Below, piece after piece: positions 15,606-55,692 of a stretch of DNA of 64,000 nt (its first letter is position 1; every line of letters starts with the position of its first letter). The stretch lies in the IMG/VR virus record IMGVR_UViG_3300032325_000466, positions 62,001 to 126,000 of that record, one strand, 5' to 3'. The position numbers and the translations under genes were made by a program. Origin of the DNA: a virus. The notes below the pieces were generated by a model. It had not been told where the DNA came from. It was given only the letters and a program-made list of their open reading frames with translations, and ran no database searches.

Positions 15606-16511
15606 TTATTCTTCATAAACGGTAGAACTAACCCCACCAGCACCACCTTGACGCGACCAACTTGGGTTAAGGCCGTTGATTTCCAAAATATCATCACGAA
15701 TATTTTGGTTACGCTTTTCAGTGTTTAGCACTCGACAAAATGAATTAGTTATAGCAGCAGTGTAATATGCAAATGGGTTAGCACTTTTCGCTTCATTAAA
15801 TCGAAGACCAACATAAGTTAGCTGTAGAATAGCACTGTTTTGCATTTCATCACGATAAGTGTATCCACGCCAGTTATACTTCATAGCATATTTTTCGCAC
15901 ATCATGATATACATTCGGGCTAGTGTATTGGTAAGCTGCCCATGATCTTTGCTAAACGAACCAGACACCAAATCACCCTGCCAATGACTTTTACCTACAC
16001 AGTAAAAGCTATTATTATCGTCAATCTTAAAATGCTGAAAGGGTGGGAAATTGACCTTAACATGAACCATATCGTCTATTTCTCTTGCAGTAACTACACC
16101 CTCTAAGTCTTCAAACAGTGAGTCGGATTCAATGATTTCAAGTTCAAAAATGTCTTTGGCTGTTTTCTTTTTAACAGTTTTTCTAGGTTGTTTGGGTGCA
16201 ACTGGAATATGATCCCAACACATTACGCGAAATACTAAGTCAGTGACAGGGATAGTAGTTGGGTCTATTTTTGTTCCCAGTTCTTGTCCTAACCTAACAG
16301 CACGATTTTCTTGTGCTTGCTGTATAATTTCTGGTTTGAAGGCATATTCTAAACTGGTATTAATGGGATCTTGGGGCATATCAACGATAAAATCATAGCG
16401 ATGATATTCAGGTTGTTCATAAAAACAGTAAGTATTTTTACTTGCGTGGATCTCTTTGAGTATATCTTTGTTGTTAAGATAATTGATTGGTTTTTTGTAT
16501 GGTATAGACAT
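15606..16511 (-). CDS. gp55: Late transcription sigma factor (gp55-like)
   Basis: Sigma-like factor of 301 residues that directs host RNA polymerase to TATAAATA late promoters. The C-terminal 110 residues carry the gp55/sigma region 2-like core: CEKYAMKYNWRGYTYRDEM, NPFAYYTAAITNSFCRVLN and KRNQNIRDDILEINGLN. The N-terminal 180 residues are an extension not seen in T4 gp55 (185 residues). The frame could open at a TTG at 16559, but a sigma70 promoter lies inside that extension and an AAGGAAG ribosome-binding site precedes the ATG at 16511, so the latter start is chosen. Its targets are visible through the window as the TATAAATA elements before virion genes. Confidence 0.85.
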   Translation of the reverse strand: MSIPYKKPINYLNNKDILKEIHASKNTYCFYEQPEYHRYDFIVDMPQDPINTSLEYAFKPEIIQQAQENRAVRLGQELGTKIDPTTIPVTDLVFRVMCWDHIPVAPKQPRKTVKKKTAKDIFELEIIESDSLFEDLEGVVTAREIDDMVHVKVNFPPFQHFKIDDNNSFYCVGKSHWQGDLVSGSFSKDHGQLTNTLARMYIMMCEKYAMKYNWRGYTYRDEMQNSAILQLTYVGLRFNEAKSANPFAYYTAAITNSFCRVLNTEKRNQNIRDDILEINGLNPSWSRQGGAGGVSSTVYEE

Positions 16512-16535
16512 AGCTTCCTTATATAGTTTTTTACT

Positions 16536-16564
16536 ATTATACAGCCTTGAGAACCGCAAATCAA
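16536..16564 (-). promoter_or_regulatory. Sigma70-type promoter of gp55
   Basis: Minus strand: TTGATT at 16564-16559, a 17-base spacer, and TATAAT at 16541-16536. It sets the start of gp55 at 16511 and implies that the late sigma factor is made from a host-type promoter. Confidence 0.7.
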
Positions 16565-40000: not shown

Positions 40001-43000
40001 CTGTGGGTACTGGAACAGGTGTAGTATCAACTGTATTTGGCGATGTAATTGCTAATATAGAGTTTTATGTTACTACTGTTATTGACGCAGAGAATTTTAC
40101 AATGTCTTATACCAGTACTCCTACTGAGACAACTCTGTATGCAACTACTGCTGGAACAAATTATGTGACTGTAGAAAGCGTAAATGGATTTAATGTAAAT
40201 GATCCTATAATCTTTACTAATATGCAAATTGCAGGTACTAGGGTTACAGACTTTGGAAATATCCAAGCAGGCATAGTTTACTATGTACAGTCAATAATTA
40301 ATGGTACTCAAATTCAAATTTCTACTCAATTTAATGGTGCAGCGTTAACCCTTACTACAGTGGCAGTAGCAACCGACACTAATGGTACAATAACTAATCA
40401 AAGTGAGAATGTACAATTAAATAATGCAATTGGAGAAATGACTTTAGTAGCTGGTCTGCCAATTAGCCCTGGTCAAATTAATGGCCAACGATTTGCCTTT
40501 TACCCAACCTCAAACGCATTCACTGGTGTTAGTGGTATAACAAGTGACTTATTAACAAGAACTATTACAGCAGCAGTAAGTACCAATAATGGTTTATATT
40601 TAGCTATCAGTACTGGTGGAATATCGGATGTGTATATAAATATGCCGTTTATAGTTCAAACAGCAATTGGTGGATTGTTGACAGGTACTACATATTATGT
40701 TAGAAGTACAGGCACATTAACCACTACTGTAACCAATACTACTACTTCTACTAACAGGTTAACTTGTAGTACAACAGCAGGATTTTATGAAGGTATGGCA
40801 ATAAAATTCTCAGGTGCGGTATTTGGTGGAATAACTCCAAATCTTACATACTTTATATTATCAATAGTTGATGGAAACACATTTACTATTTCTAATGACA
40901 TAGGCGGTACTGAAGTTACTCTATCTACTAGTGTTGGTAGTATGCTGCTGACCGGGGAACAGTATATCACTGTAAATGATGGAGCAGGCTCCCAAGTATT
41001 CTTATCTGATGATATTGCTTTCGTCACTCTAGACCAGTACCCAACCTCACCCCCAACATTCAATGTTGGATATACTGCAGGTGGATATTTCGTACAAGTA
41101 GCAACTCCAGGTACAGGTTATGCAGTAAACAATACTATTACGGTTGATGGTGCTCAATTAGGTGGAGAATCAGGTACAAATGATTTAACAATGACAGTAT
41201 ATGAAATATCATCAATTGGTGAAGTTGTTACAGTTATTAGTACCGGTGCACCAGCTGGAATAAATGCAAATTATTACTTAAAAGTCATATCAGAATATGA
41301 ATGTGAACTTTACTACAACTCATCATTATCTATTCCAGTACCAGGATCACAATTCCCATTTAATGGTATTACTCAAACTACAGTTACTGGGGTAACTGCT
41401 GCAACCAATGAACTTACTGTAAACAGTTCAGCGAGTTTTGCTATTAATGACCCTGTTGTATTCACTGGAGATGTATTTGGTGGAATGATATTGGGAGAAA
41501 CTTATTATATTAAAACAAAACCATCACCAACAACAGTAACTATTTCAACATTCCCAAATGGTACAGTATTTGATATTACCGCAGATGAGACAGGCGATTG
41601 TATAATGGCTACTGTAGGCGATGTTAGCTTATTGCCTGACCCATTCTATGCTACTCAAAGTATAGTTATTTACAATAACAAAGTATATCAGTGTGCAGTA
41701 AGTAACAACGATGATGATTTTGTTTTCCGTAAATGGCAATTAATGGACAGTGGGGATAGACAATTAAACGCACTTGACAGAATAGTGGGCTACTATCAAC
41801 CTACTATTAATATGCCTGGTCTAGATCTTACACAGTTAGTAGCTAATATTGTTTACCCAAATAATACTTACTTAGATAACGCATTTGCTCCAGCAGATGA
41901 GTACCCCTATGATACACTACTATTAGATAACACCTTTACTCAAGTCAATGACAATATATACACAGTACAGGGTGATGAATTTACGGCTGGTTATGGTCCT
42001 GAAGAATTAGTACCAGGCATAGTAACTGACAATCTAACAATGATTGTAAAAACACGCCCAGGTAGTAATTGGGAATCTACTGTTTATCAGAATGTGGGAT
42101 ATAATTCAGTTTCTACCGAGATTACTCCAGCACAACCTGATCAAGTACTATACTCATTTGTAAATGTTGTAATAAACCCAATACAAATATCAGTGTTTGA
42201 TATTGATACTACCACAAAACTAAGCACAAGATTGTATGATTACACTATAGATTGGATTAATAAAGTAGTTACACTATCTACTCCGCTAGCAGAGAACCAC
42301 ATACTTAGAATTGATGTATATGAAGTAGGTAATGGTGACCAGCTAGTTCGTTCAAATTCACAAACTACCCCATTCTTCTTAAATGAAGATACTCAATTTA
42401 GTGAAATTTATTTAGACTGCCTCTACTCTGCTTCTATCACTAATGGATCAGGATTAATCATACCTGGTAGTGCACCAAGTTCAATTGAAGCAATTGAAAC
42501 CAGCGCAACAGATAACACTATTTTATGCTTATCAGTATCTTCATTTACTCTTAATGCTCCAATTACTTTCCAAGGCGCAGTTTTTGGCGGTGTCGCACTA
42601 GACACTACATACTATGTTAAAACAGCAAGCGCAATTACAGACAGAATAACAATATCTGATACACTAGTTGCTGGTATAGCAGGTCCTACCCTAACGCTAA
42701 CATCAGCTACAGGTAGTATGCAAGCGATTATTCAAGCTGATAACGGTTTAGTTTGGACAGATCCAATCATTGTTCATAATGGTACAAGATTAACATTGGG
42801 TGAGCAAAGCTTTGTCACACAAACTAAGAGTAGCACAAATTCAATAGTTTGTAACTCTACGGCTCACTTTGACTTAAATGATACCGTTACTTTTAGTGCA
42901 ACAATGTTTGGTGGCATTATACAACCTAACACGGTATACTATATCGCTACCATCGTAGATGATAACGATTTTACTATTTCAGAAACTCTAGGTGGACCTA

Positions 43001-45111
43001 TACTCGCACTAACAGATGCTACTGGTGCTGCATTCTGTATAACAGCAGACTATGCGATTGCAGTAGCTGGTGATGAAGTTGGTGTCGCTCGCCCAGGAAT
43101 ATCAGCTAAAATAGTATTCCCAGTTATCTATACCACATCAGATGATTATGTATCATTTGCAGTATTTGGTCAAACAATACCTGAACAATATGGATACACT
43201 CTACCTGAAACACAAACTTATACAGGTACAGGTGCTCTACAAACATTCTCATTATTCAACTATGCTAGCGGAGATAATCCAAATAATGCTATTGTTGAGA
43301 TTGATGGATTGCGCTTATCAAATACTGATTATACAATTGATGCTGAATTATCTACGATAACCTTTACAACTGCCCCTGCACTTGACGCTAAGATAGCAGT
43401 TACTACATACAATCTAACTGATCGTCAGTATTTTAACACACAGTATGACATTACTGGCAATATCATTTCTTCAATCATTGGTATCAGTAATGCTATCACC
43501 GTGCCCCTAGCTAATACACCAGTTTATTCTTCTACTTCAGTGGGTAACTTAATTACTTGCGCTTCAACTAGTAATTTTATAGTTAATCAACCTATACAAT
43601 TCTTTGGCGTTGCCTTTGGAAATATACTAACTGATGGTACAGTGTATTTTGTTCTTACCGTTAATAGCCCAACCGAGTTTACTATATCCCAAACACAGGG
43701 AGGTAGTGCTTTCAATCCAGGTACAGCATCAGGTATTATGCTAGGTTCAGTTGGTGGACAACCTGCTATTCGCGTAACTACACAATTGGATAATGAATTT
43801 GTTACTAATGATTTAGTTGTTATTGATGCAACTGATGGTTCAGTACAGCTAAACAATAACGCATATTATGTTCATGTAATCAGTCCTACTCAGTTTGACT
43901 TATACACTGAACCATATGATCCTGCTATTGACGCTACTAATTACCCAGTAACTCAATCAGGTACATATACCGGTGGAGGATTTACTTGGTTAGACGGTAT
44001 GTTTACTCTGACTGATGTTGTCGCTACTGGAACTTCAAGTGTAGATAATACTATTATTGTTCCTGACACTGTTGGTCTAATAGTTGATACTCCAGTACTG
44101 TTCACTGAGCAGGGTAAGAAAGATGGTGAAACTACGCTAGGTGGATTAATAATAGGCCAAGAATATTACATAAGGTCAATTCCCAATACTACTAAGTTTA
44201 AAGTTTCTACTATTAGAGCAGGCGCCGAAGTTATTTTAACAACTGATGCAGGTAGTATGAATGTTACTCAGTGGGAACAACTAAATGTAGATAGATTATG
44301 GGTAACAGTTAACGGTTATCGTGTACCTTCATCGTCACTGCGCTTGAACCCAAATAATAATTTAAGCATTTTAGTTCAAATGGCTGCTACTGATGCGGTG
44401 ACTATCACTAATATGATTCCCACAGCTACACCAAATGAATTAGTGTATCTACAAAATGTTAATAAAGATAGTGTACCCGCAGTGTTCCGTGCAAACTCAA
44501 ATACACGCACTTGGCTAACTCAACCATTGATTAAAACTGATACCTATATATTCATGAGTGATGTAAGCAGAGTTACCGACACTGTTATACAAAATGCGGT
44601 AGCTCCCGCCCCAATTGACGATGCAATGTATATCCCATTACAAGCTGATAGAAATACCATTTGTCAAGTAATACTATACAATGAAACTTCGGGAGAATAT
44701 CTATTTGGAGTCTATGAAGTGGTAATCATAGCAACTGCTCCTGTACTTAAGATTATACCTACTGAACCTATTTCGGGCACTATATTCGTCAGCGAAGGTA
44801 ACAACTTAGTTATTACTATAACAATGGGTAAACTACTCTTTATCAACGGTGAATATATTTCATTTAGCGAAGTTAATTATGGAGCTAACTCGGTTGGTAA
44901 ATTACAACGAGGAATCAATGGTACTGGCATACAACCAATAACTCCTACATATTCTGAAGTCTATGGATTACTGACTGCCAACTTATTACCCGAAGCAGAG
45001 TATACTGTAACTTGGAATCCTATACCCGGTGTTTATAATGCTGTTAAGGGTGATCCATTACAATTAGCAGACACAACGGCAGCAAATTTCTTAAAAGGTG
45101 ACATCCCTTAA
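28003..45111 (+). CDS. Giant baseplate/tail protein of 5702 residues
   Basis: One uninterrupted frame covering 17.1 kb. It follows gp6 where T4 has gp7 and gp8, and opens with RIRTLNFLPDIFRTPTNSQF, so an oversized wedge or peripheral baseplate protein is likely. Regions seen: an N-terminal 1-2250 beta-rich body; seven FG-GAP-type repeats at about 2275-2810 forming an integrin-like propeller; a conserved ELLPLRVFRSDNQVFLSGYI and NEAKPYHVVIKDF section near 3370-3410; a VSGFPVTGTVLIGTELIGYT module near 3500; then about ten copies of a 70-90-residue repeat at about 3820-5425, one with a GTTDFTLCGASANEIG insertion near 3975. The last 200 residues form a further beta domain. Function in host contact or baseplate shape is inferred from context only. 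Confidence 0.75.
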   Translation: MATRIRTLNFLPDIFRTPTNSQFLGATLDQIVDQPNTMKIEGYVGSKFGYGVNAKDYYVVEPTKTRTDYQLEPGVVFTKKDTSTAQDFISYPGIVDALKLAGGVTNNNDRLFNSQFYSWDSFTNLDPLINYTQYYWISDTAFPAVTVSTNTVYNSGAYVVTSLPTGYEITSDTDPVGSINPSITLLRGGVYTFQVSQATQFWIQGQPGITGYDPAQPNMQTRDVFGVTNNGANVGLVTFAVPYKDAQDQYIFSGNNLVDVVSDIPYDQINGKLLSEIGNIDGLTSLEGKTVMFYGDVSASTYFYQITYTAGPTPTDPIIILVPTVGIPVNEKITATSGTTYIGRNFYRSPAGLITIIPYLSSLLDTLYYQDGTNPLQVGVINLIESNFTDILDVDTIIGKKTYTSPNGVVFTNGLKVSFSGNITPASYSNNEYYVQGVGTAISLIPVTALAVPESFTKQSASYIPYDTTPYDTKNYDAQLYVPIDQDYITISRDSIDKNPWSRSNRWFHTDVINATAQYNNDPTIVDRYATQANKAKRPIIEFYPNLGLFNSGIVGKAPVDFIDIRTTDAFNQVAGQIIYYPDVAVFTSETAIIAAATSATSTTIQINSSSILPGSGSFAVGQYITDSTNVLPYNTTISAISGTTGVLTITVEWPNPDTIVPTGPASLVANPSPNDNYAIFDGARIVFTNDTNINVRNKIYVARFSIIIPNVQTVITLTEADDGLVLPNEQTVAYKGYYNQGKGWYFDGLNWYEAQQKITVNQPPLFDIFDGDNISLGNPEVYAGTSFKGNKLFAYAIGSGTNDPILGFPLKYVTIGGLVGDISFDVSLNSDTFNYVRGSKSITQKVNTGYVYNYSDIDTYARQLGWQTAVAPSRQYQLFSADYDKTLLTQQSTVDPLYPDTTTTRNVFVVECDIAADLTSIWPYLQVSRNNDILAPTQYTSIVSDTTTTVIIDVDEPLIETVYQIAILSNQVSSTAFYQIPINLNNNPLNEEITTLNVGDIRGQYQSIFYNNPDTTGEVFGSNNYRDLGNLVPWGNKIIQNSASLVLPGTFLRKPDHNLILSLQYNSQQYITFKSLLIDTVNNTAYETYTTPANALDDALDQMTASKLESGPFFWSDMIPSKAAYITNVYRFANALDVSIYPLSQVYNFETANYNGVLVYLTRNNIITQLVTGVDYTVSTTAPTLTIETDLLPNDLITIKQYNQTYGSYVPNTPTKLGLYPAFIPSVILDANYAQPTYFIKGHDGSYNKLYGEYIDGVLTDLRDQVLLEFELRVYNNLKLSNTIPIRDYDVLPGFFRDSQYSFSEVLSIYEQYFLNWVGQNRIEYKPQVYINGDQFTYNYNQSGNKINQEQIPVGNWRGVYQYFYDTASPDTAPWEMLGFANQPTWWTSRYGPAPYTSDNLILWGDLAAGINWNNGDPVVIPQAVRPELLQVLPVDSAGNLVSPFVAVVGNYDQRTFNNDWRAGDVGPTEFSYRRSSSWPFDLMKILALTKPANFFNLGVDVDNYKYSKEFNQYLVNERSHLVISDIEIYGTGTPKTSYINWIVDYEKQVGIDATTNITTLLDNLDVRLVYRLAGFSDKTLLRFFVEKGTPNSTNASLMIPDESYAVLLYDNQPFEQIVYSSVVIQKTVNGWKVFGNSQSRAYFTINPPKIDGRYDTISVENLSVQAANNYQLDREAIIPYGTEFYNAQDVSQFLASYGAYLSSQGVLFDQIESGLQVSWSQMIAEFLYWAQSGWQVGSIVNINPAANLISINQESAIVQPLTLQRQNFVLNQNLYPIQSIDLSVVRDGTLFTAQTLNRGDTVAYGQFNMSAIEHGIVFDNVTLFNDVIYNLVTGLRQNRIFLRGTKSAEWNGTLDAQGFILNQDNINEWSKETKYTTGEIVKFKNKYWVALAKLQASETFQEQFWKRTDYNEIQKGLLPNSSTRSYESTLYYDTNYANLEQDADLLSFSLIGYRPRDYLAVADLTDITQINVYKNLIKEKGTRTAINTFKGASLAQGDINYDVYENWAIKSGEFGGVLNNNFIDFRLNQNQLTGNPSIVGLTTGVFTDGVQQEVPLYSVFNYGRPVTDPNVLATLPTDTPDKLFPSAGYPNFNDVKTYSYFYSGLNNAVVPLSRLYVGEYLWVADFKGTWQVFTPQSISQVINVINNLNNTITVQFNAPHNLVKFQPFAIINFNTNIDGYYIVTSVLDPTRVTVTLSLSSATLNITGTGIGVAFTSQRVGKPSDIASFPVNDNEFIKTKVWVDENNDGSWAVYRKSLNYQYKSELIKDDSFTFGSAVAYTSDLGYLISDASLGEVYRYTYNSVFARYDLTQTLVGATTFGTTIGYAGSIFAISQPTGVTTNDRIVSVYNLVTNTLTNALQLIQTITAPSGITNWGRAITVSGDQQWLYIGGYEQNVVYAYKFNATTDEYDHVATIALSTSETGDNFGYSLSTNYYGNTLVVGAPGENYNATTDNWGYTYVFNRLSQTFEFQFDQAPSFTLAFTPTTVSVAVNGTALEATEYTLIGNVVSITKSLNTGDIIIVSGNQFVLMQELTTQNQPRIGVQFGYSLDTNNYGTEILVGAPFEVNASNQEGAVYRYTTSGGAYGYIIGSKECYVYDTTNILINGYQVTVPAGDAASTASAINAAKITNVTASAADNILTIRLVNVKLALMNDKLNLQVLQTNILDQLGITVYTQTQTINDPNQQSRTQFGTAVRFNELGSFVVSAPVAARYAHTTFDMTDDENFDNDTLFDNNTTQWVDRFINAGAVYMYDYLSVYNENLHNVGKFVYAQSVNALNENYGAQPYYGTALDFNSNNVIVGTPGFKPGTTNGQVVVYDNSTGVQNWATYRYSAPVVDTGAIQNVQLYSAITNNTLENLDYIDPLQGKILGVVRENLDVVSNADPAVYNSSTANNQGAIVWGERQLGQLWYNTSTTRFVNYHQNDSVTYNSQWWGRVFPGSNVQVLSWITSDQLPVNYSGPGTPYDITSYSIEYTTNSTGALVPVYYYWVRNTNIIFSKTGKTLSDTVCESYIGLPTATGIAYMAPIQPNVFGLYNSGDYINANDSVLHIGFATSRNDDVSHSSYNLIKANYASDFLPGLPGVGSAIEPESLYLKMIDSLSGVDTAGGIVPDPFLPKPVQSGILSRPRQSFFYNRFKALQNYLEYANTVLAQFPILEIRNGNLSFLYKVGEVNKSTDPVYNTDPTSPYYSPDPWTGPILPFYDTTDYWTPINWWATGYNDNTKSSLLVPLYSDLSTIGNPQNGLIVTVAENGAGSQETYRYVAPVGDTAGYWVRIGLQNGTIKFNSSLWDYATARIGFGDSFFDTQPYDYYPSAETRNIIRSLNEEIYIGELLIFRNKSLILLFEYIQSETVESQNYMPWLNKTSFIDVSHTIRELLPLRVFRSDNQVFLSGYINEAKPYHVVIKDFIFNYTRTDLYNSDITDFDLPAKYNTDYDQFITPMLVYSGADDINEFLPTDPIWQSPDYTTWYNNYGLSLSTVYKYPMTTVASYLNLVSDNLYVNNVSGFPVTGTVLIGTELIGYTGIDTAYNILTGLTRGVKDTLVQNHIYGEQIYIDLPPILVLNSGREYTVPPKVTAYIDTSVYPAPRVAAILTPIMSFDKVIGVQVVNSGSGYAVLPEIVFEPALIENFTSTGVDTDLNYIALTTTGLVTGDLVRYDVGTDTEPVSGLQVGAYYYVNLLQTTPTNVIALYTNYVDAIQDHNRVNLYTQGSGDNNILALTAVASCTTTSQPVRENITTLRFDRTSYNSSLQTWQPGQFYGSKYTGDLSLTKLASSSLLLQSTNPPISEILASAQGQTFEILEVRNVETYTWSSRTRSVFATTSPDRITVMSSAGGDSLNPTLGFYVDMPIKFEGEEFGGLSVGVTYYVTDVYNNLEFSVSETIGGMPITLTTESAPSAGLLAITGTLTNQAVIKLFYPGILKATATTKITNIVTVPLLPTGLGGTQGFYTGLPIYFTGRNVQAGSFVIGKGYTIVSVGTTDFTLCGASANEIGVQFTATSVGTGTGVVSTVFGDVIANIEFYVTTVIDAENFTMSYTSTPTETTLYATTAGTNYVTVESVNGFNVNDPIIFTNMQIAGTRVTDFGNIQAGIVYYVQSIINGTQIQISTQFNGAALTLTTVAVATDTNGTITNQSENVQLNNAIGEMTLVAGLPISPGQINGQRFAFYPTSNAFTGVSGITSDLLTRTITAAVSTNNGLYLAISTGGISDVYINMPFIVQTAIGGLLTGTTYYVRSTGTLTTTVTNTTTSTNRLTCSTTAGFYEGMAIKFSGAVFGGITPNLTYFILSIVDGNTFTISNDIGGTEVTLSTSVGSMLLTGEQYITVNDGAGSQVFLSDDIAFVTLDQYPTSPPTFNVGYTAGGYFVQVATPGTGYAVNNTITVDGAQLGGESGTNDLTMTVYEISSIGEVVTVISTGAPAGINANYYLKVISEYECELYYNSSLSIPVPGSQFPFNGITQTTVTGVTAATNELTVNSSASFAINDPVVFTGDVFGGMILGETYYIKTKPSPTTVTISTFPNGTVFDITADETGDCIMATVGDVSLLPDPFYATQSIVIYNNKVYQCAVSNNDDDFVFRKWQLMDSGDRQLNALDRIVGYYQPTINMPGLDLTQLVANIVYPNNTYLDNAFAPADEYPYDTLLLDNTFTQVNDNIYTVQGDEFTAGYGPEELVPGIVTDNLTMIVKTRPGSNWESTVYQNVGYNSVSTEITPAQPDQVLYSFVNVVINPIQISVFDIDTTTKLSTRLYDYTIDWINKVVTLSTPLAENHILRIDVYEVGNGDQLVRSNSQTTPFFLNEDTQFSEIYLDCLYSASITNGSGLIIPGSAPSSIEAIETSATDNTILCLSVSSFTLNAPITFQGAVFGGVALDTTYYVKTASAITDRITISDTLVAGIAGPTLTLTSATGSMQAIIQADNGLVWTDPIIVHNGTRLTLGEQSFVTQTKSSTNSIVCNSTAHFDLNDTVTFSATMFGGIIQPNTVYYIATIVDDNDFTISETLGGPILALTDATGAAFCITADYAIAVAGDEVGVARPGISAKIVFPVIYTTSDDYVSFAVFGQTIPEQYGYTLPETQTYTGTGALQTFSLFNYASGDNPNNAIVEIDGLRLSNTDYTIDAELSTITFTTAPALDAKIAVTTYNLTDRQYFNTQYDITGNIISSIIGISNAITVPLANTPVYSSTSVGNLITCASTSNFIVNQPIQFFGVAFGNILTDGTVYFVLTVNSPTEFTISQTQGGSAFNPGTASGIMLGSVGGQPAIRVTTQLDNEFVTNDLVVIDATDGSVQLNNNAYYVHVISPTQFDLYTEPYDPAIDATNYPVTQSGTYTGGGFTWLDGMFTLTDVVATGTSSVDNTIIVPDTVGLIVDTPVLFTEQGKKDGETTLGGLIIGQEYYIRSIPNTTKFKVSTIRAGAEVILTTDAGSMNVTQWEQLNVDRLWVTVNGYRVPSSSLRLNPNNNLSILVQMAATDAVTITNMIPTATPNELVYLQNVNKDSVPAVFRANSNTRTWLTQPLIKTDTYIFMSDVSRVTDTVIQNAVAPAPIDDAMYIPLQADRNTICQVILYNETSGEYLFGVYEVVIIATAPVLKIIPTEPISGTIFVSEGNNLVITITMGKLLFINGEYISFSEVNYGANSVGKLQRGINGTGIQPITPTYSEVYGLLTANLLPEAEYTVTWNPIPGVYNAVKGDPLQLADTTAANFLKGDIP
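34825..36423 (+). other. Seven FG-GAP-like propeller repeats inside the giant protein
   Basis: Within the 5702-residue frame, seven blades begin at about residues 2275, 2320, 2375, 2427, 2547, 2693 and 2789. Each has F/W/Y-G-x-[AST] followed by a G-x-[LV]-x-[VI]-[GS]-[AT]-P type strand, for example FGYSLSTNYYGNTLVVGAPG and FGYSLDTNNYGTEILVGAPF. Several are followed by a GxVYxY strand. Seven such repeats are the number needed for an integrin-alpha-type beta-propeller. Confidence 0.7.
39460..44275 (+). repeat. About ten copies of a 70-90-residue beta repeat in the giant protein
   Basis: The consensus runs N-x-[IL]-T-V-x-S-T-x-x-F, then P-I-x-F-x-G-x-x-F-G-G, then G-x-T-Y-Y-V, then F-T-I-S-x-T-x-G-G and a closing L-T-x-x-x-G-S-M. 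Clear copies include VFTGDVFGGMILGETYYIKT, IKFSGAVFGGITPNLTYFIL, ITFQGAVFGGVALDTTYYVK and VTFSATMFGGIIQPNTVYYI. Copies differ greatly in sequence, so they are old duplications. Confidence 0.7.
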
Positions 45112-47938: not shown

Positions 47939-48439
47939 ATGCACGATGACACGAAAAATCCTAGCAATTTAGCTAAGGGTAGAACTAGCTTTGATATTAA
48001 TGTAGGTGGTACGCTTGTACCCTTCTTTAATAAAAACATCACTCCCTACCCTACAGATGTAAGTGCTCCCAAATTTGAGCTAGTACCTGTACGCGAGAAA
48101 AAAGACTTGATGATAAATTCTGCCCGCATGTATGCCGAGCAAGAATACAACCGTATCATGGAGTTAGTAAATGTGTTACAATCACAAGCTAATCAAATAA
48201 AACGCAGATTAGATATTACAGATTGGGTACATAGTGCTGATTATAACTTTAATACTACACATGGTGGGTATTATTGGATAGCACAGGATACAAATAGAAA
48301 TCGCACAGTTCTATTGATAATGGGCCCCAGTGACTGGTCAACAGGCGCTCCCGAACACTTTGAATATATCGCTAGAGTAAAGTATATGGGCGATCATACT
48401 TGGGTAGAAGTAGATGATCAAAACAATATAAAATGGTGA
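47939..48439 (+). CDS. DUF2452-like phage protein
   Basis: A 166-residue protein with a likely DUF2452 pattern: a helical middle (ARMYAEQEYNRIMELVNVLQ), then WVHSADYNFNTTHGGYYWIA, LLIMGPSDWS and a closing FEYIARVKYMGDHTWVEVDD. Function is unknown. An in-frame TTG lies two codons earlier, but the ATG at 47939 is preferred because an extended -10 box (TGATATAAT, ending 47933) lies directly before it. It is the last protein gene before the tmRNA locus. Confidence 0.7.
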   Translation: MHDDTKNPSNLAKGRTSFDINVGGTLVPFFNKNITPYPTDVSAPKFELVPVREKKDLMINSARMYAEQEYNRIMELVNVLQSQANQIKRRLDITDWVHSADYNFNTTHGGYYWIAQDTNRNRTVLLIMGPSDWSTGAPEHFEYIARVKYMGDHTWVEVDDQNNIKW

Positions 48440-48492
48440 ATAAATGATACACTTTACAATAACTGATCACGATATGAAGGGCAAATTCGGTA

Positions 48493-48523
48493 TTGACTTT
48501 TACCATCGAACAGTGTATAAATA
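48493..48523 (+). promoter_or_regulatory. Promoter of the tmRNA: sigma70 box overlapping a late TATAAATA
   Basis: TTGACT at 48493-48498, a 17-base spacer, and TATAAA at 48516-48521. The same bases extended to 48523 read TATAAATA, the full late consensus, so the RNA could be made both early and late. The start would be near 48528. Confidence 0.7.
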
Positions 48524-48528
48524 GTATT

Positions 48529-48978
48529 GTTCGTTGAAAGGTTCATCATAAGCACATACGCTGATAGCAAGCGACTAAGGCAGCTATGCGAAATCTTAGT
48601 TTAATGTGTGCTTTTGATGAATCAGTAGAGGAATTCGTTGAGGGTAACCTCTAGAAGTCGTTATTGGACTAGCTGTGGACGTGGGTTCGATTCCCACCGG
48701 GTCCACCAAAAGTATACTACTTGATTGGTTGACTACCCAAGGTTATCGTTGATAGAGAATTAGTCGCTCAGTAGATAACAAGTGTACTTCTGATGGGCCT
48801 GACCTGGTTTCGACATGGTTAGAAAGGAACGATTAGAATCGGCAATGTTAAAGCCGTTAGGGTTGGGATTTCTCGGCCGTAGAGACAAAAAACTATAAAT
48901 GCTAACGCATCTAACGATGAGGTTTTCGCTCTAGCAGCGTGATCTCCGGGGTTGACAACCTTGTAACCAAATAGTCAG
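48529..48978 (+). ncRNA. ssrA: Circularly permuted (two-piece) tmRNA
   Basis: Transfer-messenger RNA, which rescues stalled ribosomes and tags the nascent peptide. The acceptor piece comes first: a T-arm (GTGGG-TTCGATT-CCCAC) and CCA at 48706-48708. The coding piece starts at 48795 with GGGCCTG, followed by the tmRNA-typical GGTTTCGACATGG. The two ends pair into a 7-bp acceptor stem (GGGCCTG with CGGGTCC), and helix P2 forms between 48828-48834 (AACGATT) and 48656-48662 (AGTCGTT). The tag frame at 48901-48942 reads ANASNDEVFALAA then TGA, with the usual ALAA-type degradation end. The 86-base spacer at 48709-48794 has complementary ends (AAGTATACT with AGTGTACTT) and would be removed. An upstream stem (48542-48556 with 48607-48621) probably belongs to the acceptor-piece precursor; the exact mature ends are not certain. 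Confidence 0.92.
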
Positions 48979-48979
48979 G

Positions 48980-49005
48980 AAAGGCTCGCAAGGGCCTTTT
49001 CTTTT
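48980..49005 (+). terminator. Terminator of the tmRNA gene
   Basis: Stem AAAGGCTC, loop GCAA, GGGCCTTT, then TCTTTT. Nearly the same 26 bases occur again at 49585-49610. Confidence 0.75.
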
Positions 49006-49010
49006 GGCAG

Positions 49011-49018
49011 CATAAATA
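49011..49018 (+). promoter_or_regulatory. Late promoter-like CATAAATA, five bases before the GNAT gene
   Basis: CATAAATA, then CTAGC, then the ATG at 49024; it matches the leaderless N5 arrangement and lies just past the tmRNA terminator. Confidence 0.6.
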
Positions 49019-49023
49019 CTAGC

Positions 49024-49569
49024 ATGAACATCAAAGAAATAATCACCGAAGAAGTAGTTGCCGAATACTGGACCACTGGAAGGGGTACTACAAAACAAGG
49101 TATTGATATGGGTGACATGATAAAATCTCAAGTTGAGCTGGTCAACACCCCATTAACTCAACTTAATGTTAGATATTCCCCTTTTAGTAATTCTGCAAAA
49201 ATACATGAATATTATCTATACGATAAAGAAACTGATAAGTGCGTTGGGTATTTTTTCGTAGAAATGCAAAATAAAAAATTTGATAAAGTATTGAAACCTG
49301 GTATTAGCGCAGTAATTCCCCATATAGGACTAGCACTCCGCGTTCAAGGTAAGGGTATAGCTAGTCAAATTTATACAACATTTTTACGAGGTGGTCCATG
49401 GGTGTTCGTAACTGAATCGCATAGTAATGCAGCCGCAGCACTTTGGGACAGGATAGCAACTGGTGATATCATTGAAGTTTATGTTGATGCAAAAACCGAA
49501 AAACGAATTGAAAATTCAAAGAGTGTGATCGATTATAGAATGATTGGTCCAAAAGATAGGTTCCTCTAA
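49024..49569 (+). CDS. GNAT-fold acetyltransferase-like protein
   Basis: A 181-residue protein with an N-terminal MNIKEIITEEVVAEYW helix common in phage virion-associated proteins, then a GNAT-like domain: EYYLYDKETDKCVGYFFVEM strands, the acetyl-CoA loop RVQGKGIASQIYTTFL (R/Q-x-x-G-x-G/A type, near residues 110-125) and the FVTESHSNAAAALWDRIATG closing helix. The substrate is unknown; it could modify a host or virion protein, or be a structural GNAT relative. The gene stands alone with its own late promoter and terminator, between two nearly identical terminator copies. Confidence 0.7.
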   Translation: MNIKEIITEEVVAEYWTTGRGTTKQGIDMGDMIKSQVELVNTPLTQLNVRYSPFSNSAKIHEYYLYDKETDKCVGYFFVEMQNKKFDKVLKPGISAVIPHIGLALRVQGKGIASQIYTTFLRGGPWVFVTESHSNAAAALWDRIATGDIIEVYVDAKTEKRIENSKSVIDYRMIGPKDRFL

Positions 49570-49677: not shown

Positions 49678-50460
49678 ATGAAAAAAATTCTAATGTGCGA
49701 TCCCCGATTCTTTGGGGTTACTTATGATATCAACCCATGGATGTCTAGTAATATTGGGTGTGTAAATCAATCACTTGCTCGTGAACAATGGACTCTATTG
49801 CGAGATGCTATCTCAAGTGTAACTGAAGTAGAAGTATTGCCGGGAGTAGAAAATTTACCCGATTTAGTTTTTACTGCCAATGCTGGCATTGTTAGAAAAA
49901 ATCAAGCAATCGTAGCTAAGTTTAGCAAATCTGAACGGCGTGCAGAAGAAGAGCATTTTAAAAAATGGTTTAGTGAGCATAAGCTAATCACTGTTCAAAC
50001 TGTTCATTCATATGAGGGTGAAGGTGATCACCTAGTAGATAAATTAGGCCGTCATTGGCTGGGTACTGGCTTTAGAACAGATGGTAAAGTAGCTGAAGAA
50101 TTGACTAGAATTCTATGGGTTCGTATGAATACATTAGAGTTAGTTGATCCTCGCTGGTATCATTTAGATACTTGTTTTGCACCTTTACCATATGGTGAAG
50201 TAATTTGGTATCCTGGTGCATTTTCAGAGAGTAGCCAACAACTTATTCGCAGCGCATTTAGAACTAGGATAGAAATAAGTGAAGAAGATGCTAGTGCATT
50301 TGCTTGCAATTTGGTAGCACTGGGTAATAATATCTTTCTTCCCAAGAACTTTGGTGCATCAGACCGATTACAGGGTCTTGGTTACAAAGTCCAAGAATTT
50401 GATTTAAGCGAATTTATGCGAGCAGGTGGCGCAGCCAAATGCTTGACGCTATACTATTAA
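49678..50460 (+). CDS. DDAH/amidinotransferase-family enzyme (arginine-modifying hydrolase)
   Basis: A 260-residue member of the guanidine-modifying superfamily (dimethylarginine dimethylaminohydrolase, arginine deiminase, amidinotransferase). Active-site elements are all in place: DLVFTANAG (62-70), EGEGDHL (113-119), His162 in WYHLDTCF and the nucleophile Cys255 in GGAAKCLTL. The start MCDPRFFGVTYDINPWM is typical of DDAH-like proteins. The size fits a free hydrolase. A phage could use it to release citrulline/ornithine and amines or to alter host arginine pools; the exact substrate cannot be told by eye. It has its own promoter and terminator and so behaves as an independent accessory gene. 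Confidence 0.8.
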   Translation: MKKILMCDPRFFGVTYDINPWMSSNIGCVNQSLAREQWTLLRDAISSVTEVEVLPGVENLPDLVFTANAGIVRKNQAIVAKFSKSERRAEEEHFKKWFSEHKLITVQTVHSYEGEGDHLVDKLGRHWLGTGFRTDGKVAEELTRILWVRMNTLELVDPRWYHLDTCFAPLPYGEVIWYPGAFSESSQQLIRSAFRTRIEISEEDASAFACNLVALGNNIFLPKNFGASDRLQGLGYKVQEFDLSEFMRAGGAAKCLTLYY

Positions 50461-50577: not shown

Positions 50578-50877
50578 ATGACAAAAGTGTATATGGTTGA
50601 TATAGATAACACTATCTGCATAAGCAAAGGTAATGACTATGCTAACAGCGAACCATTAATAGATCGTATTGCAAAAATAAATGAGTTGGTAAAACAAGGT
50701 CACAAAGTCATTTATTGGACAGCGCGAGGCAGTAGCAGTGGAATAGATTGGACAAACGAAACACACAGTCAACTAACAGCCTGGAACTGTGAATACCATG
50801 AAATTCATATGGGAAAACCATCATATGATATATGGATAGACGACAAGGCTATTAATTCAGAGGATTTTTTCAAGTGA
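50578..50877 (+). CDS. Small HAD-family phosphatase
   Basis: A 99-residue haloacid-dehalogenase-type protein with the catalytic DIDNT (Asp8, Asp10, Thr12), motif II in VIYWTARG, and the IWIDDKAIN acidic motif near the C-terminus. It lacks a cap domain, as in small capsule/LPS-linked phosphatases. Because the next genes encode heptose-pathway enzymes, it may take the GmhB role (removing a phosphate from a heptose bisphosphate), but this is inference. It has a GGGAGAT ribosome-binding site and overlaps the following gene by four bases (GTGA). Confidence 0.75.
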   Translation: MTKVYMVDIDNTICISKGNDYANSEPLIDRIAKINELVKQGHKVIYWTARGSSSGIDWTNETHSQLTAWNCEYHEIHMGKPSYDIWIDDKAINSEDFFK

Positions 50878-52865
50878 ATATTTTAATTTTCTCCCACAGT
50901 TGTAATCTCGGCGGAGCAGAGAATGCACTAATTTGTTTGGTATCAGAATTAAGTGCTAAACATACAGTAACAATATCTTTCCCTAATGCACAAGGTCCAC
51001 TAATAGATTATTTTACTAGAAAGAATATTAGATGCGTGTCGTTACCTCTAGGATTCTCCCTCCCCAATCCACATGACGCCTTGGTTAAGTTTTCACAAGT
51101 ATGTAATGATAATGTAATCGAACAAATACGAGAATTAAATTTCGACATGATCATATGCAATACTATAGTTACTTTGCATGGATTACTATTAGCAAAAATT
51201 TTAAAAATTCCAAGTATATTGTATGCACATGAAAAATTAGAGTTTGATACTGATTTAGCACCTCACGGATGTTCCTCTAGGTTTTATTTAGATTTGGTGG
51301 GAATGGCGTCCAATCATATTATGTGTACCTCCGAGTATGTTAAAAAATCATTTACTCAATTTAATAATAAAGCTAGTGTATTGTATATGTTTGATCAACA
51401 TATACAGTCGATAGAAACACCAGTTATGAATGATGACTTGGTTTCTATTTCGGTGATAGGTATAAAATCGATTAGAAAAAACACGCATTTCGCAATAACG
51501 GTATTAAAAGCCTTGCGTCTAAGGGGAATGAACGCTGAATTACATTTAATTGGTCAAAATGGTTCTGGAATGCATTTATTAGAGCAGAAGTTAAAAATTC
51601 GCGGAGAACCAAATATCCATGTATACCCTAATCAACCCGATCCGTATGCAATTGGAAAAGGTAAAAAGATAACATTAATAACAGCTATTTGTGAACCGTT
51701 TGGATTAACCATGATGGAATCATTGTTCAGGGGTATCCCTGTTGTTGCATCGAAATGCGGTGGCCCGGAAGAGGTATTACCAAAATCATATCTATATGCA
51801 GTAAATGATTTGGAGTCATGTGTTCGAAATATAGAAGAAGTGGTGTCAAACTATAAAACTCACGCTAATACGGCTAAGAAAACTTATAACAATTTTATAA
51901 AAAAACATCCTAAAAAAGAAATATCTGATGTTATCTCATCGGCAATTGACAGCGCAAAACAGGATTTTAGTAAAAATGGTAACGGATCTACTTCAATTAA
52001 GTGGGAAGATTTTAAATTCTTGGTAGAAAGTCCATTGTCCAATGAGGATATTGTAAAAAATATAGCAGAAGTTACAAAGACCACTACTGATGTCATAGAA
52101 ATTCAATTGACAAAAGAACGTGTAACACCCGGGATATCCGTGCTGAATGATATTCGTAAGTTTGATGTTGTCCCCTATACCATATCCGACAACTTGACAA
52201 ATCTTTACAAAGAAGGCACCGGACTAGCAATTGAATTATTATCTTCTATAGGTGATAGTGGAAAAATTTCCATGCTAAGTTATATATTGTTAGCTCTAAA
52301 AGAAAAACAACAGATTAACCCAATAAAAAAAGTACTGTGTTTAGGCGATGGTATAGGAATAGATGCGATTAGGTTTGCACAATGCGGATATGAGGTTGAT
52401 TATCTTGATTTTGATTCTTCAAAAATGGCAAAAATTGCAGAATTAAACTTTAAAAAAATTAAAGAAAATAATCCCACACTAAAATTAAACATTGTAAAAA
52501 CGCCCACACAAAAATATGATGTAATTATATCACTTGAAGTTATCGAGCATGTAGACGATCCTGTTGATTTTTTAAAGTTTATTCATAGTATGATGAACGA
52601 TGATGGATTTTTGTTTATTTCCGAATGTTTTGATGGTATATATGATGTTTGGCCTACACATATACTAAAACATGAAGAATTTTCTAATTTACTACCTTTA
52701 TTGGCAAGTCCTTACTTTAAATTAGTAGATATAAATAACACCTACTTTGGAAAACCATATATGTTTCAAAAAATAGACGCAGTGTCATCTGATGTATTGG
52801 ATTTTCTAAAAAATAGAGAATGGGTGATAAATTTTATAAATACAAAACTTAAAATTGGAATTTAA
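50874..52865 (+). CDS. Fusion of GT4 glycosyltransferase and SAM methyltransferase
   Basis: A 663-residue two-enzyme protein starting at GTG. Residues 1-345 are a GT-B family 4 glycosyltransferase: HSCNLGGAENALICLV at the N-terminus, a YAHEKLEF segment, and the nucleotide-sugar site EPFGLTMMESLFRGIPVVAS with CGGPEEVLP. After a linker, residues about 480-640 are a class I methyltransferase: VLCLGDGIGIDAIRFAQCGY (SAM loop), DYLDFDSS, IISLEVIEHVDDP and FISECFDG. One protein could thus add and then methylate a sugar on a surface glycan or on a virion protein. It is coupled to the HAD gene and followed by the heptose kinase. Confidence 0.85.
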   Translation: MNILIFSHSCNLGGAENALICLVSELSAKHTVTISFPNAQGPLIDYFTRKNIRCVSLPLGFSLPNPHDALVKFSQVCNDNVIEQIRELNFDMIICNTIVTLHGLLLAKILKIPSILYAHEKLEFDTDLAPHGCSSRFYLDLVGMASNHIMCTSEYVKKSFTQFNNKASVLYMFDQHIQSIETPVMNDDLVSISVIGIKSIRKNTHFAITVLKALRLRGMNAELHLIGQNGSGMHLLEQKLKIRGEPNIHVYPNQPDPYAIGKGKKITLITAICEPFGLTMMESLFRGIPVVASKCGGPEEVLPKSYLYAVNDLESCVRNIEEVVSNYKTHANTAKKTYNNFIKKHPKKEISDVISSAIDSAKQDFSKNGNGSTSIKWEDFKFLVESPLSNEDIVKNIAEVTKTTTDVIEIQLTKERVTPGISVLNDIRKFDVVPYTISDNLTNLYKEGTGLAIELLSSIGDSGKISMLSYILLALKEKQQINPIKKVLCLGDGIGIDAIRFAQCGYEVDYLDFDSSKMAKIAELNFKKIKENNPTLKLNIVKTPTQKYDVIISLEVIEHVDDPVDFLKFIHSMMNDDGFLFISECFDGIYDVWPTHILKHEEFSNLLPLLASPYFKLVDINNTYFGKPYMFQKIDAVSSDVLDFLKNREWVINFINTKLKIGI

Positions 52866-54468: not shown

Positions 54469-55176
54469 ATGAAAAAAATCTTACTAGCATCACTAATCAT
54501 GGCTGCATTTGGTAGCGCACACGCTCAAGTAGCAGGTCTATCAGGAAACCTAGGTCTAACTACTGACTATCGTTTTCGTGGTATTTCTCAAACTCAAAAT
54601 GGTGCAGCCGTTCAAGGTGGCATAGACTACGCTCATAAGAGCGGCTTTTATGTTGGCAACTGGAACAGTTCAGTTAGTAGCGCACTATTTCCCGCTAGCG
54701 CCGGCATCGAAAGCGATCTATATCTAGGCTTTAAGAAAGAAGTTTTCAAAGGCGTAACAATCGATGTTGGTACAATGAGCTATGTTTATTCACGCGCATC
54801 AAGCTTTGGTACTAGCGAAGTTTATGCTGGTGTAGGTTATGGTCCAGTTACTGTAAAAGTTAGCCAATCACTAAGCAACTATTTTGGTGTAGCAGATAGC
54901 GTAGGTTCACGCTACTACCAAGCTGACCTAGCACAGCCAATCACTAGCAAGATCACTCTAGGTGCTCATGTTGGTCGTACATTTGTCAATAACAACACTT
55001 CACTAGACTATACTGACTATCGTGTTGGTGCATCTTATAACGCAGCTGGTTGGGTATTTGGTGCAAATTTCCACACTAACAACAACTATGGTAGCAGTGC
55101 TAAAGCTGCTATGACAGTTGCAGGTCAGTCACTATACAAAAACACCGTTGTACTATCAGTAGCAAAATCATTCTAA
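54469..55176 (+). CDS. TorF-family putative outer-membrane porin
   Basis: A 235-residue secreted beta-barrel protein. It has a clear signal peptide, MKKILLASLIMAAFGSAHA, with cleavage likely before QVAG. The mature part matches the proteobacterial TorF/gcw_chp family: LGLTTDYRFRGISQTQNGAA, VQGGIDYAHKSGFYVGNWNS, SDLYLGFKKEVFKGVTIDVG, SEVYAGVGYGPVTVKV, and it ends in an aromatic residue (AKSF) as outer-membrane barrels do. Codons look different from neighbours (many AGC and CTA), suggesting capture from a host. With its own sigma70 promoter and terminator it is a self-contained gene. It is not an obvious virion protein and probably goes into the host outer membrane. Confidence 0.85.
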   Translation: MKKILLASLIMAAFGSAHAQVAGLSGNLGLTTDYRFRGISQTQNGAAVQGGIDYAHKSGFYVGNWNSSVSSALFPASAGIESDLYLGFKKEVFKGVTIDVGTMSYVYSRASSFGTSEVYAGVGYGPVTVKVSQSLSNYFGVADSVGSRYYQADLAQPITSKITLGAHVGRTFVNNNTSLDYTDYRVGASYNAAGWVFGANFHTNNNYGSSAKAAMTVAGQSLYKNTVVLSVAKSF

Positions 55177-55190
55177 TACTTTACTAATCA

Positions 55191-55219
55191 AAATAAGGGC
55201 TTTGTAGCCCTTATTTTAC
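55191..55219 (+). terminator. Terminator of the porin gene
   Basis: An 11-bp stem, AAATAAGGGCT, loop TTGT, AGCCCTTATTT, followed by TTA. Confidence 0.8.
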
Positions 55220-55242
55220 CCTTTACTTAGGAGAACACACAC

Positions 55243-55692
55243 ATGTCAGTCACACTAAAAAATTTAGAATCGGCTTTAGCCGGTGAATCTATGGCACATA
55301 TCAAGTACCGATATTTTGCCAAACTAGCCCGAGCAGAAGGCTATGAAGAAGTAGCCAAACACTTTGAACACACTGCTGACCAAGAGCTACTACATGCTTG
55401 GGGTCATCTTGAACTGCTAATTGGTAAACCATCTACTAAAGAATGTTTGGAAAAAGCAATCGAAGGAGAGACCTACGAGTTCACCGTGATGTATCCAGAG
55501 TTCGAAGCAGTTGCTAGGAACGAAGGAAATGAAGAAGCAGTTCGTGAAGCCGTGGAACAAATCGCTGAATCCATGGAACATGCCGCACAATTCGCAGCAG
55601 TTTTGGCTAAAGCAGAAAAGCGTTTTTCAGCACTCAAGCGTGTAGAAGAGCGTCATGCAAATGCTTATAAACAAACTTTAGGGAGTCTATAA
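55243..55692 (+). CDS. Rubrerythrin-type diiron protein without rubredoxin domain
   Basis: A 149-residue ferritin-like four-helix protein. Diiron ligands are spread as in rubrerythrin: ESMAHIKYRYFAKLA with Glu15 and the His/Tyr that follow, the E-x-x-H in DQELLHAWGHLE, a third Glu in YPEFEAVARNEGNEEA, and the last helix EQIAESMEHAAQF. Rubrerythrins reduce hydrogen peroxide. The usual C-terminal rubredoxin domain is missing here but is encoded by the next frame, which overlaps the stop by one base. The GGAG ribosome-binding site is good. The pair would protect infected cells from peroxide or shuttle electrons at low oxygen. Confidence 0.85.
   Translation: MSVTLKNLESALAGESMAHIKYRYFAKLARAEGYEEVAKHFEHTADQELLHAWGHLELLIGKPSTKECLEKAIEGETYEFTVMYPEFEAVARNEGNEEAVREAVEQIAESMEHAAQFAAVLAKAEKRFSALKRVEERHANAYKQTLGSL

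What the first reader, a model, noticed from the sequence alone, without database searches (positions are those of the whole stretch)
48529..48978. Phage-encoded circularly permuted (two-piece) tmRNA
The acceptor end with CCA (48706-48708) lies upstream of the 5' coding end (48795), joined by an 86-base spacer. A 7-bp acceptor stem and a 7-bp P2 helix form between the two parts, and the tag frame reads ANASNDEVFALAA with stop. Permuted tmRNA genes are known from alphaproteobacteria, some cyanobacteria and some betaproteobacteria; I do not know of one described in a T4-like phage. A phage copy could keep ribosomes free, or tag host or phage proteins with a changed degradation signal.
Basis: partly seen in the sequence, partly recalled or inferred. 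Interest (0 to 1): 0.92.

Follow-up and report, generated by a model that had tools for sequence, protein, structure and literature searches.

The report
Phage-encoded permuted two-piece tmRNA
A large virus of bacteria carries its own ribosome-rescue RNA (tmRNA), made from a gene whose two halves are in swapped order; this kind was already known in phages, but this copy belongs to an apparently phage-only lineage, and in relatives the spacer between the two halves has become a slot for small protein genes, which looks new.

Summary
ARAGORN calls a permuted tmRNA. Rfam RF04321 (95 bits, E 4e-17) and RF01850 beta_tmRNA (92.9 bits) both pass their cut-offs. The claim that none is described in a T4-like phage is wrong: the T4-like methylophage Melnitz has one, and 53 phage two-piece tmRNAs were counted in 2022 (PMC9004378).

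What I add: (1) the gene looks like its own late transcription unit, with TATAAATA at 48516-48523, a gp55-like late sigma factor in the window and a candidate terminator; (2) an unusual ~95-nt leader with an 18-bp three-way-junction hairpin; (3) a tag found in 31 viral stretches and none of 84,980 prokaryote genomes; (4) a spacer whose ends pair, extending the acceptor stem.

In related viral contigs the spacer grows to 150-242 nt, and 57 of 78 hold a small ORF (24 unrelated families, mostly under purifying selection). In 42 of 57 the stop codon ends 1 nt before the second piece. The window itself lacks such an ORF. Most likely function: late ribosome rescue using host SmpB and alanyl-tRNA synthetase.

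The parts
48516..48523 (+). T4-type late promoter motif TATAAATA; transcription start expected near 48529
   Evidence: Sequence; ATAAATA enriched upstream of ORFs of this phage, 39 against 8.6 in shuffles; late sigma gene present. Use as a promoter is inferred.
48540..48623 (+). Leader hairpin: 18-bp stem with one mismatch closing a three-way junction; candidate loop-loop pairing ATAGC 48564-48568 with GCTAT 48583-48587
   Evidence: Fold -33 kcal/mol, z -3.5, 1 of 200 shuffles as good; no Rfam match; no sequence relative in the loci held
48624..48708 (+). Acceptor piece (5' end uncertain): P2 3' strand, T-arm 48681-48697, acceptor strand 48698-48704, discriminator A48705, encoded CCA 48706-48708
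48709..48794 (+). Intervening spacer, 86 nt; ends pair (48710-48718 with 48781-48789) and extend the acceptor stem; no ORF
48795..48976 (+). Coding piece: acceptor 5' strand 48795-48801 with G3.U70, D-like loop, P2 5' strand 48814-48822, tag, 3' structured part (3' end uncertain)
48901..48942 (+). Tag reading frame ANASNDEVFALAA and stop TGA
   Evidence: tag pattern in 31 viral stretches, 0 of 84,980 genomes
48977..49002 (+). Terminator-like hairpin followed by T-rich sequence
   Evidence: 11-bp stem in the fold; not reported by the strict terminator scan
15606..16559 (-). gp55-like sigma factor for late transcription
   Evidence: phrog_12791 E 4e-72, phrog_234 E 2e-22; T4 gp55 matches at E 7e-6

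Best explanation
This is a working two-piece tmRNA gene of a large T4-superfamily phage. Late in infection the phage's gp55-like sigma factor directs transcription from TATAAATA at 48516. The precursor folds so that the acceptor stem continues into a helix formed by the two spacer ends. RNase P cuts before G48795, and a 3' processing activity (host RNase Z, RNase E or exonucleases) exposes CCA at 48708. The two pieces stay paired through the acceptor stem and P2. Host alanyl-tRNA synthetase charges the RNA (G3.U70 present), and host SmpB carries it to ribosomes stalled on broken messages. The nascent chains receive ANASNDEVFALAA, a ClpXP-type degradation tag, and the ribosomes are freed for late virion synthesis. 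Shown here: gene identity, permutation, tag, identity base pair, promoter-motif enrichment and late sigma gene. Inferred: timing, processing enzymes, charging, use of host SmpB, and the benefit to the phage.
For: Gene finder and two Rfam models; encoded CCA, 7-bp acceptor stem with G3.U70, P2 of 9+6+4 bp; intact tag ending in ALAA; late-promoter motif and its enrichment; gp55-like gene; ATAAATA at a preferred distance before CCA in relatives, 39 of 145 against 4.6 in shuffles; conserved as a lineage in many viral contigs, with shared synteny in L123/L152.
Against: No transcript or processing data exist for this phage. The record holds no SmpB, so function depends on the host's. The outer helix of the Rfam models is lost. 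The promoter lies at -192 from the CCA end, whereas in relatives it sits at about -70 to -100. The terminator is not reported by the strict scan.
Confidence: 0.78

Rival explanations
1. It is a decoy or re-tagging device: the phage RNA competes with host tmRNA for SmpB, or its altered tag start avoids the host adaptor SspB, so that tagged phage or host products are degraded differently.
For: The N-terminal half of the tag differs from all bacterial beta tags seen here, which are of the ANDE.FA.AA type, and the tag pattern was not found in prokaryote genomes. A tRNA-like-domain-only phage tmRNA of DS6A is known to inhibit tmRNA (PMC4131195).
Against: The mRNA-like part and the ALAA end are intact, which a pure decoy would not need; no phage SspB found.
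Confidence: 0.12
2. It is a recently captured copy of the host's own tmRNA, carried as a passenger without use.
For: Its best older Rfam model is the betaproteobacterial one, and permuted tmRNAs exist in Rhodocyclaceae.
Against: Its nearest relatives are viral. 399 genomes of the order of Dechloromonas gave only short matches, almost all of them to about 37 nt of the T-arm; none has a 65-95-nt spacer form, and the bacterial permuted genes found have short spacers. Shared synteny and a phage-type promoter motif also argue against a recent capture.
Confidence: 0.06
3. It is a decaying gene: the tRNA-like domain persists by chance and the RNA is no longer processed or charged.
For: Outer helix lost, divergent 5' part of the acceptor piece, unusual leader.
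Against: Acceptor stem, T-arm, CCA, tag frame and stop are all intact.
Confidence: 0.04

Closest known systems
Two-piece tmRNA of Methylophilales phage Melnitz (PMC9004378; MZ577097)
   Same: T4-like phage; permuted gene; encoded CCA; long spacer ending ..TGAT before GGG; TATAAAT just upstream of the acceptor piece
   Different: Tag ANDNYVPVDYALAA; longer spacer; a glutamine riboswitch, absent here; non-canonical T-loop; published affinity to alphaproteobacterial tmRNA, whereas this one passes the betaproteobacterial model
Betaproteobacterial permuted tmRNA (Rfam RF01850; Rhodocyclaceae such as Dechloromonas, Thauera, Azonexus)
   Same: Gene order, tRNA-like domain, 3' end of the coding piece, tag ending FA.AA
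   Different: Bacterial spacers are about 20-35 nt and tags are ANDE.FA.AA; the phage gene has an 86-nt self-pairing spacer, complete CCA, ANAS extension in the tag, and a T4-type promoter motif in place of the sigma-70-like boxes of the beta model
Other viral permuted tmRNAs with tag ANASNDEV[FY]ALAA (e.g. L051, L123, L134, L145, L149)
   Same: Same tag, spacer ends that pair, shared synteny in L123/L152
   Different: They lack the leader hairpin and have the promoter motif, where seen, nearer the acceptor piece; some relatives, such as L124, carry an ORF in the spacer
Permuted tmRNAs of Xanthomonas phage X1 and Stenotrophomonas phage QDWS359
   Same: Phage permuted tmRNA with a long spacer, encoded CCA and TGAT before GGGCCTG
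   Different: Tags VAANDADYSVARYA and ANDSVYAQAIAA; not annotated in either record

Membership tests
Permuted (two-piece) tmRNA | Acceptor piece with CCA lies upstream of the coding piece | tested here: met
   CCA 48706-48708, coding piece from 48795
Permuted (two-piece) tmRNA | Score above the curated cut-off of the permuted tmRNA covariance model | tested here: met
   RF04321 95 bits, cut-off 47
Permuted (two-piece) tmRNA | Acceptor stem with alanine identity pair G3.U70 and T-arm | tested here: met
   48795-48801 with 48698-48704; T-arm 48681-48697
Permuted (two-piece) tmRNA | Tag reading frame with resume codon and stop | tested here: met
   48901-48942
Permuted (two-piece) tmRNA | Precursor cut into two RNAs that stay paired | not testable with these tools
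   Needs RNA end mapping
Permuted (two-piece) tmRNA | Works with SmpB on stalled ribosomes | not testable with these tools
   No SmpB in the phage record; host SmpB presumed
Betaproteobacterial-type permuted tmRNA (RF01850) | Score above the family cut-off | tested here: met
   92.9 bits, cut-off 84
Betaproteobacterial-type permuted tmRNA (RF01850) | Outermost helix GGUUG/CAACC of the model | tested here: not met
   Most of its pairs are non-standard in the alignment, so it is called beta-like and not a beta tmRNA
Melnitz-type riboswitch-controlled phage tmRNA | glnA glutamine riboswitch next to ssrA | tested here: not met
   No glnA match in 48400-49100 at E up to 10

The most novel reading that the evidence does not exclude
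Phage permuted tmRNAs form their own lineages in which the excised spacer is a gene slot. In relatives of the window's gene a small protein gene fills the spacer, with a Shine-Dalgarno-like sequence right after CCA and a stop codon 1 nt before the cut that starts the second piece, so that tmRNA maturation would release a mini-mRNA ending at its stop codon. The window's 86-nt hairpin spacer would be the empty state of this slot.
Probability: 0.5. Interest if true: 0.78.

Novelty: new variant of a known kind. Interest (0 to 1): 0.52.

Why it matters
It suggests that large aquatic phages keep their own ribosome-rescue RNA, probably for late infection, with a tag not found in the prokaryote genomes scanned. 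The lineage offers a direct test of why phages carry tmRNA, and of a gene layout (protein genes nested between the two pieces of one RNA) that I found in no paper. Similar tmRNAs sit unannotated in sequenced isolates (X1, QDWS359), and Melnitz carries an annotated one, so the tests can be done in culture.

Tried and rejected
A glutamine riboswitch or any other Rfam element in the leader: none. A hammerhead-like or purine-riboswitch-like reading of the three-way junction: core motifs do not fit by eye, and no Rfam match. The leader repeated elsewhere in the phage or in relatives: no. Host identification by the tag pattern: no prokaryote hit. A nucleotide match of the gene to phage isolates: none at E 1e-5; only short pieces at relaxed E. 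SmpB and SspB in the phage: none found. Judging the tRNA-like domain by folding energy: uninformative. An earlier count gave the promoter as 48513-48520; the correct position is 48516-48523.

Full report
OBSERVATION. The gene is real. ARAGORN reports a permuted tmRNA at 48616-49033 with tag ANASNDEVFALAA. Rfam gives RF04321 tmRNA_permuted with 95 bits (cut-off 47, E 4e-17) and RF01850 beta_tmRNA with 92.9 bits (cut-off 84). The acceptor stem has 7 pairs and includes G3.U70, the alanine identity pair (established knowledge). P2 is 9 bp plus 6+4 pairs, longer than reported. The outer helix of the models is not kept.

ANATOMY. The gene looks like its own transcription unit. TATAAATA lies at 48516-48523. 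In this phage ATAAATA occurs 39 times in the 80-nt upstream regions of 201 ORFs, against 8.6 in shuffles and 2.6 expected from its rate inside genes. The window also encodes a gp55-like late sigma factor (phrog_12791, E 4e-72; T4 gp55 itself matches at E 7e-6). From the expected start near 48529, a leader of about 95 nt holds an 18-bp stem closing a three-way junction (48540-48623, z -3.5). This leader has no Rfam relative and no sequence relative among the loci held. Then follow the acceptor piece, a spacer whose ends pair and extend the acceptor stem, the coding piece, and a terminator-like hairpin (fold; not reported by the strict scan).

THE PHAGE. The record is 191,027 bp and may be a fragment. 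Its portal protein is 51-56% identical to those of jumbo T4-superfamily phages (Phosso, PA5oct, Atu_ph07, XaC1), and gp46/47-like genes are present. It has 26 predicted tRNA genes about 75 kb away from the tmRNA. No SmpB or SspB was found, so those factors would have to come from the host. The host is not identified.

KNOWN OR NEW. Phage two-piece tmRNAs are published: Melnitz, and 53 of 133 unique phage tmRNA structures (PMC9004378). The window's copy differs in its tag: the tag pattern ANA[AST]NDEV[FY]A is in 31 viral stretches and in none of 84,980 prokaryote species genomes. In 399 genomes of the order of Dechloromonas only short matches were found, almost all of them to about 37 nt of the T-arm. 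None of these genomes has a 65-95-nt spacer form, and the bacterial permuted genes found have short spacers and ANDE.FA.AA-type tags. In a tree the window groups with viral ANASNDEV tmRNAs, and the bacterial beta sequences form a separate clade (the tag is part of the alignment and the viral set was chosen partly by tag, so this is partly circular). Synteny (DUF2452, tmRNA, Gcw_chp, rubrerythrin) is shared with L123/L152.

PROMOTER POSITION IN RELATIVES. In 145 non-redundant viral permuted tmRNAs, ATAAATA peaks 70-100 nt before the CCA end: 39 of 145 have one between -110 and -50, against a shuffle mean of 4.6 and a maximum of 11. TATAAT peaks at the same place, where the beta model also has a sigma-70-like box. 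Melnitz itself has TATAAAT there, although its authors placed the gene behind an early promoter. The window is an outlier at -192 because of the leader.

NESTED GENES IN RELATIVES. L124, which carries exactly the window's tag, has a DUF6356 ORF inside the spacer. Three patterns with spacers of 150-242 nt, written without any ORF requirement, found 78 loci. Of these, 57 hold an ORF of at least 40 aa inside the spacer, and 54 loci have shuffle p below 0.02. The ORFs fall into 24 families without detectable similarity to each other. Most begin 9-13 nt after CCA, often behind TAAGGA or AAGGAAG-like sequences, and in 42 of 57 the stop codon ends 1 nt before GGGCC. Within families dN is well below dS in most comparisons (0.144/1.383, 0.139/1.396, 0.113/1.524), with one close pair as an exception (L341/L343, 0.037/0.026). 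DUF2061 is recognised in one (E 3.5e-20). The tmRNAs around six of them pass RF04321 with 81-118 bits. A homologue of the largest family lies directly upstream of ssrA in Melnitz (59% identity). A paper search found no description of this, which is a limited search. It is not a property of the window's own spacer, which has no ORF.

MECHANISM. Most likely the RNA rescues ribosomes late in infection, using host alanyl-tRNA synthetase, SmpB and RNase P, and marks the products with a tag whose ALAA end fits ClpXP. Identity, structure and promoter motif are shown; timing, processing, charging and benefit are inferred. The leader hairpin is unexplained; it may protect the 5' end or help its processing. 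Decoy or re-tagging roles remain possible.

VERDICT. The window's gene is a genuine but not unprecedented phage permuted tmRNA, and a variant through its viral-only tag, long self-pairing spacer, late-promoter motif and structured leader. The more surprising result is the nested-gene slot in its relatives, which deserves its own study.

Noticed in passing
L124, L282, L313, L328, L333, L334, L339 and others: Small protein ORFs (24 families, 57 of 78 loci) fill the intervening spacer of viral permuted tmRNA genes, with the stop codon usually 1 nt before the coding piece; DUF6356 and DUF2061 are among them.
   Followed up: yes
L357 (Melnitz MZ577097.1, 44592-47174): Melnitz has TATAAAT directly upstream of its tmRNA, and its spacer has a start codon behind GGAGAAG whose frame has no stop before the second piece; the excised spacer would be a non-stop message. 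Its gene 85, just upstream of ssrA, is homologous to a spacer ORF of other phages.
   Followed up: partly
L124, L127, L334, L328 and others: Many viral permuted tmRNAs have a T-loop of the type GGCAGTG or GGCAGTA in place of TTCGA-like loops, yet pass the tmRNA models.
   Followed up: no
L046, L060, L073, L030, L098, L118: Predicted viral tags are sometimes long or end without ALAA, e.g. ANADTFDFSAMSFTGNTVSGKSKVALAA, AKASKFEYMTVDFSLEAADMVA, ATASTGEVTVKANKGIRFSARSTAKAEAFAV.
   Followed up: no
L216 (OQ427096), L217 (ON331942), L261/L265 (PV764938): Permuted tmRNA genes not annotated in Xanthomonas phage X1, Stenotrophomonas phage QDWS359 (where a CDS is annotated over it on the other strand) and Sinorhizobium phage Phosso.
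   Followed up: partly
window 28003-45111: A single ORF of 5702 codons in the tail region.
   Followed up: no
window 49678-50460, 50874-52865, 54469-55692: Host-like genes near the tmRNA: a DDAH/arginine-deiminase-like protein, a long protein that by eye joins a glycosyltransferase-like and a methyltransferase-like part, a Gcw_chp protein and a rubrerythrin.
   Followed up: no
L249-L256 (record 25-36 kb): A cluster of 26 predicted tRNA genes in the same phage record, one without an assigned amino acid.
   Followed up: no
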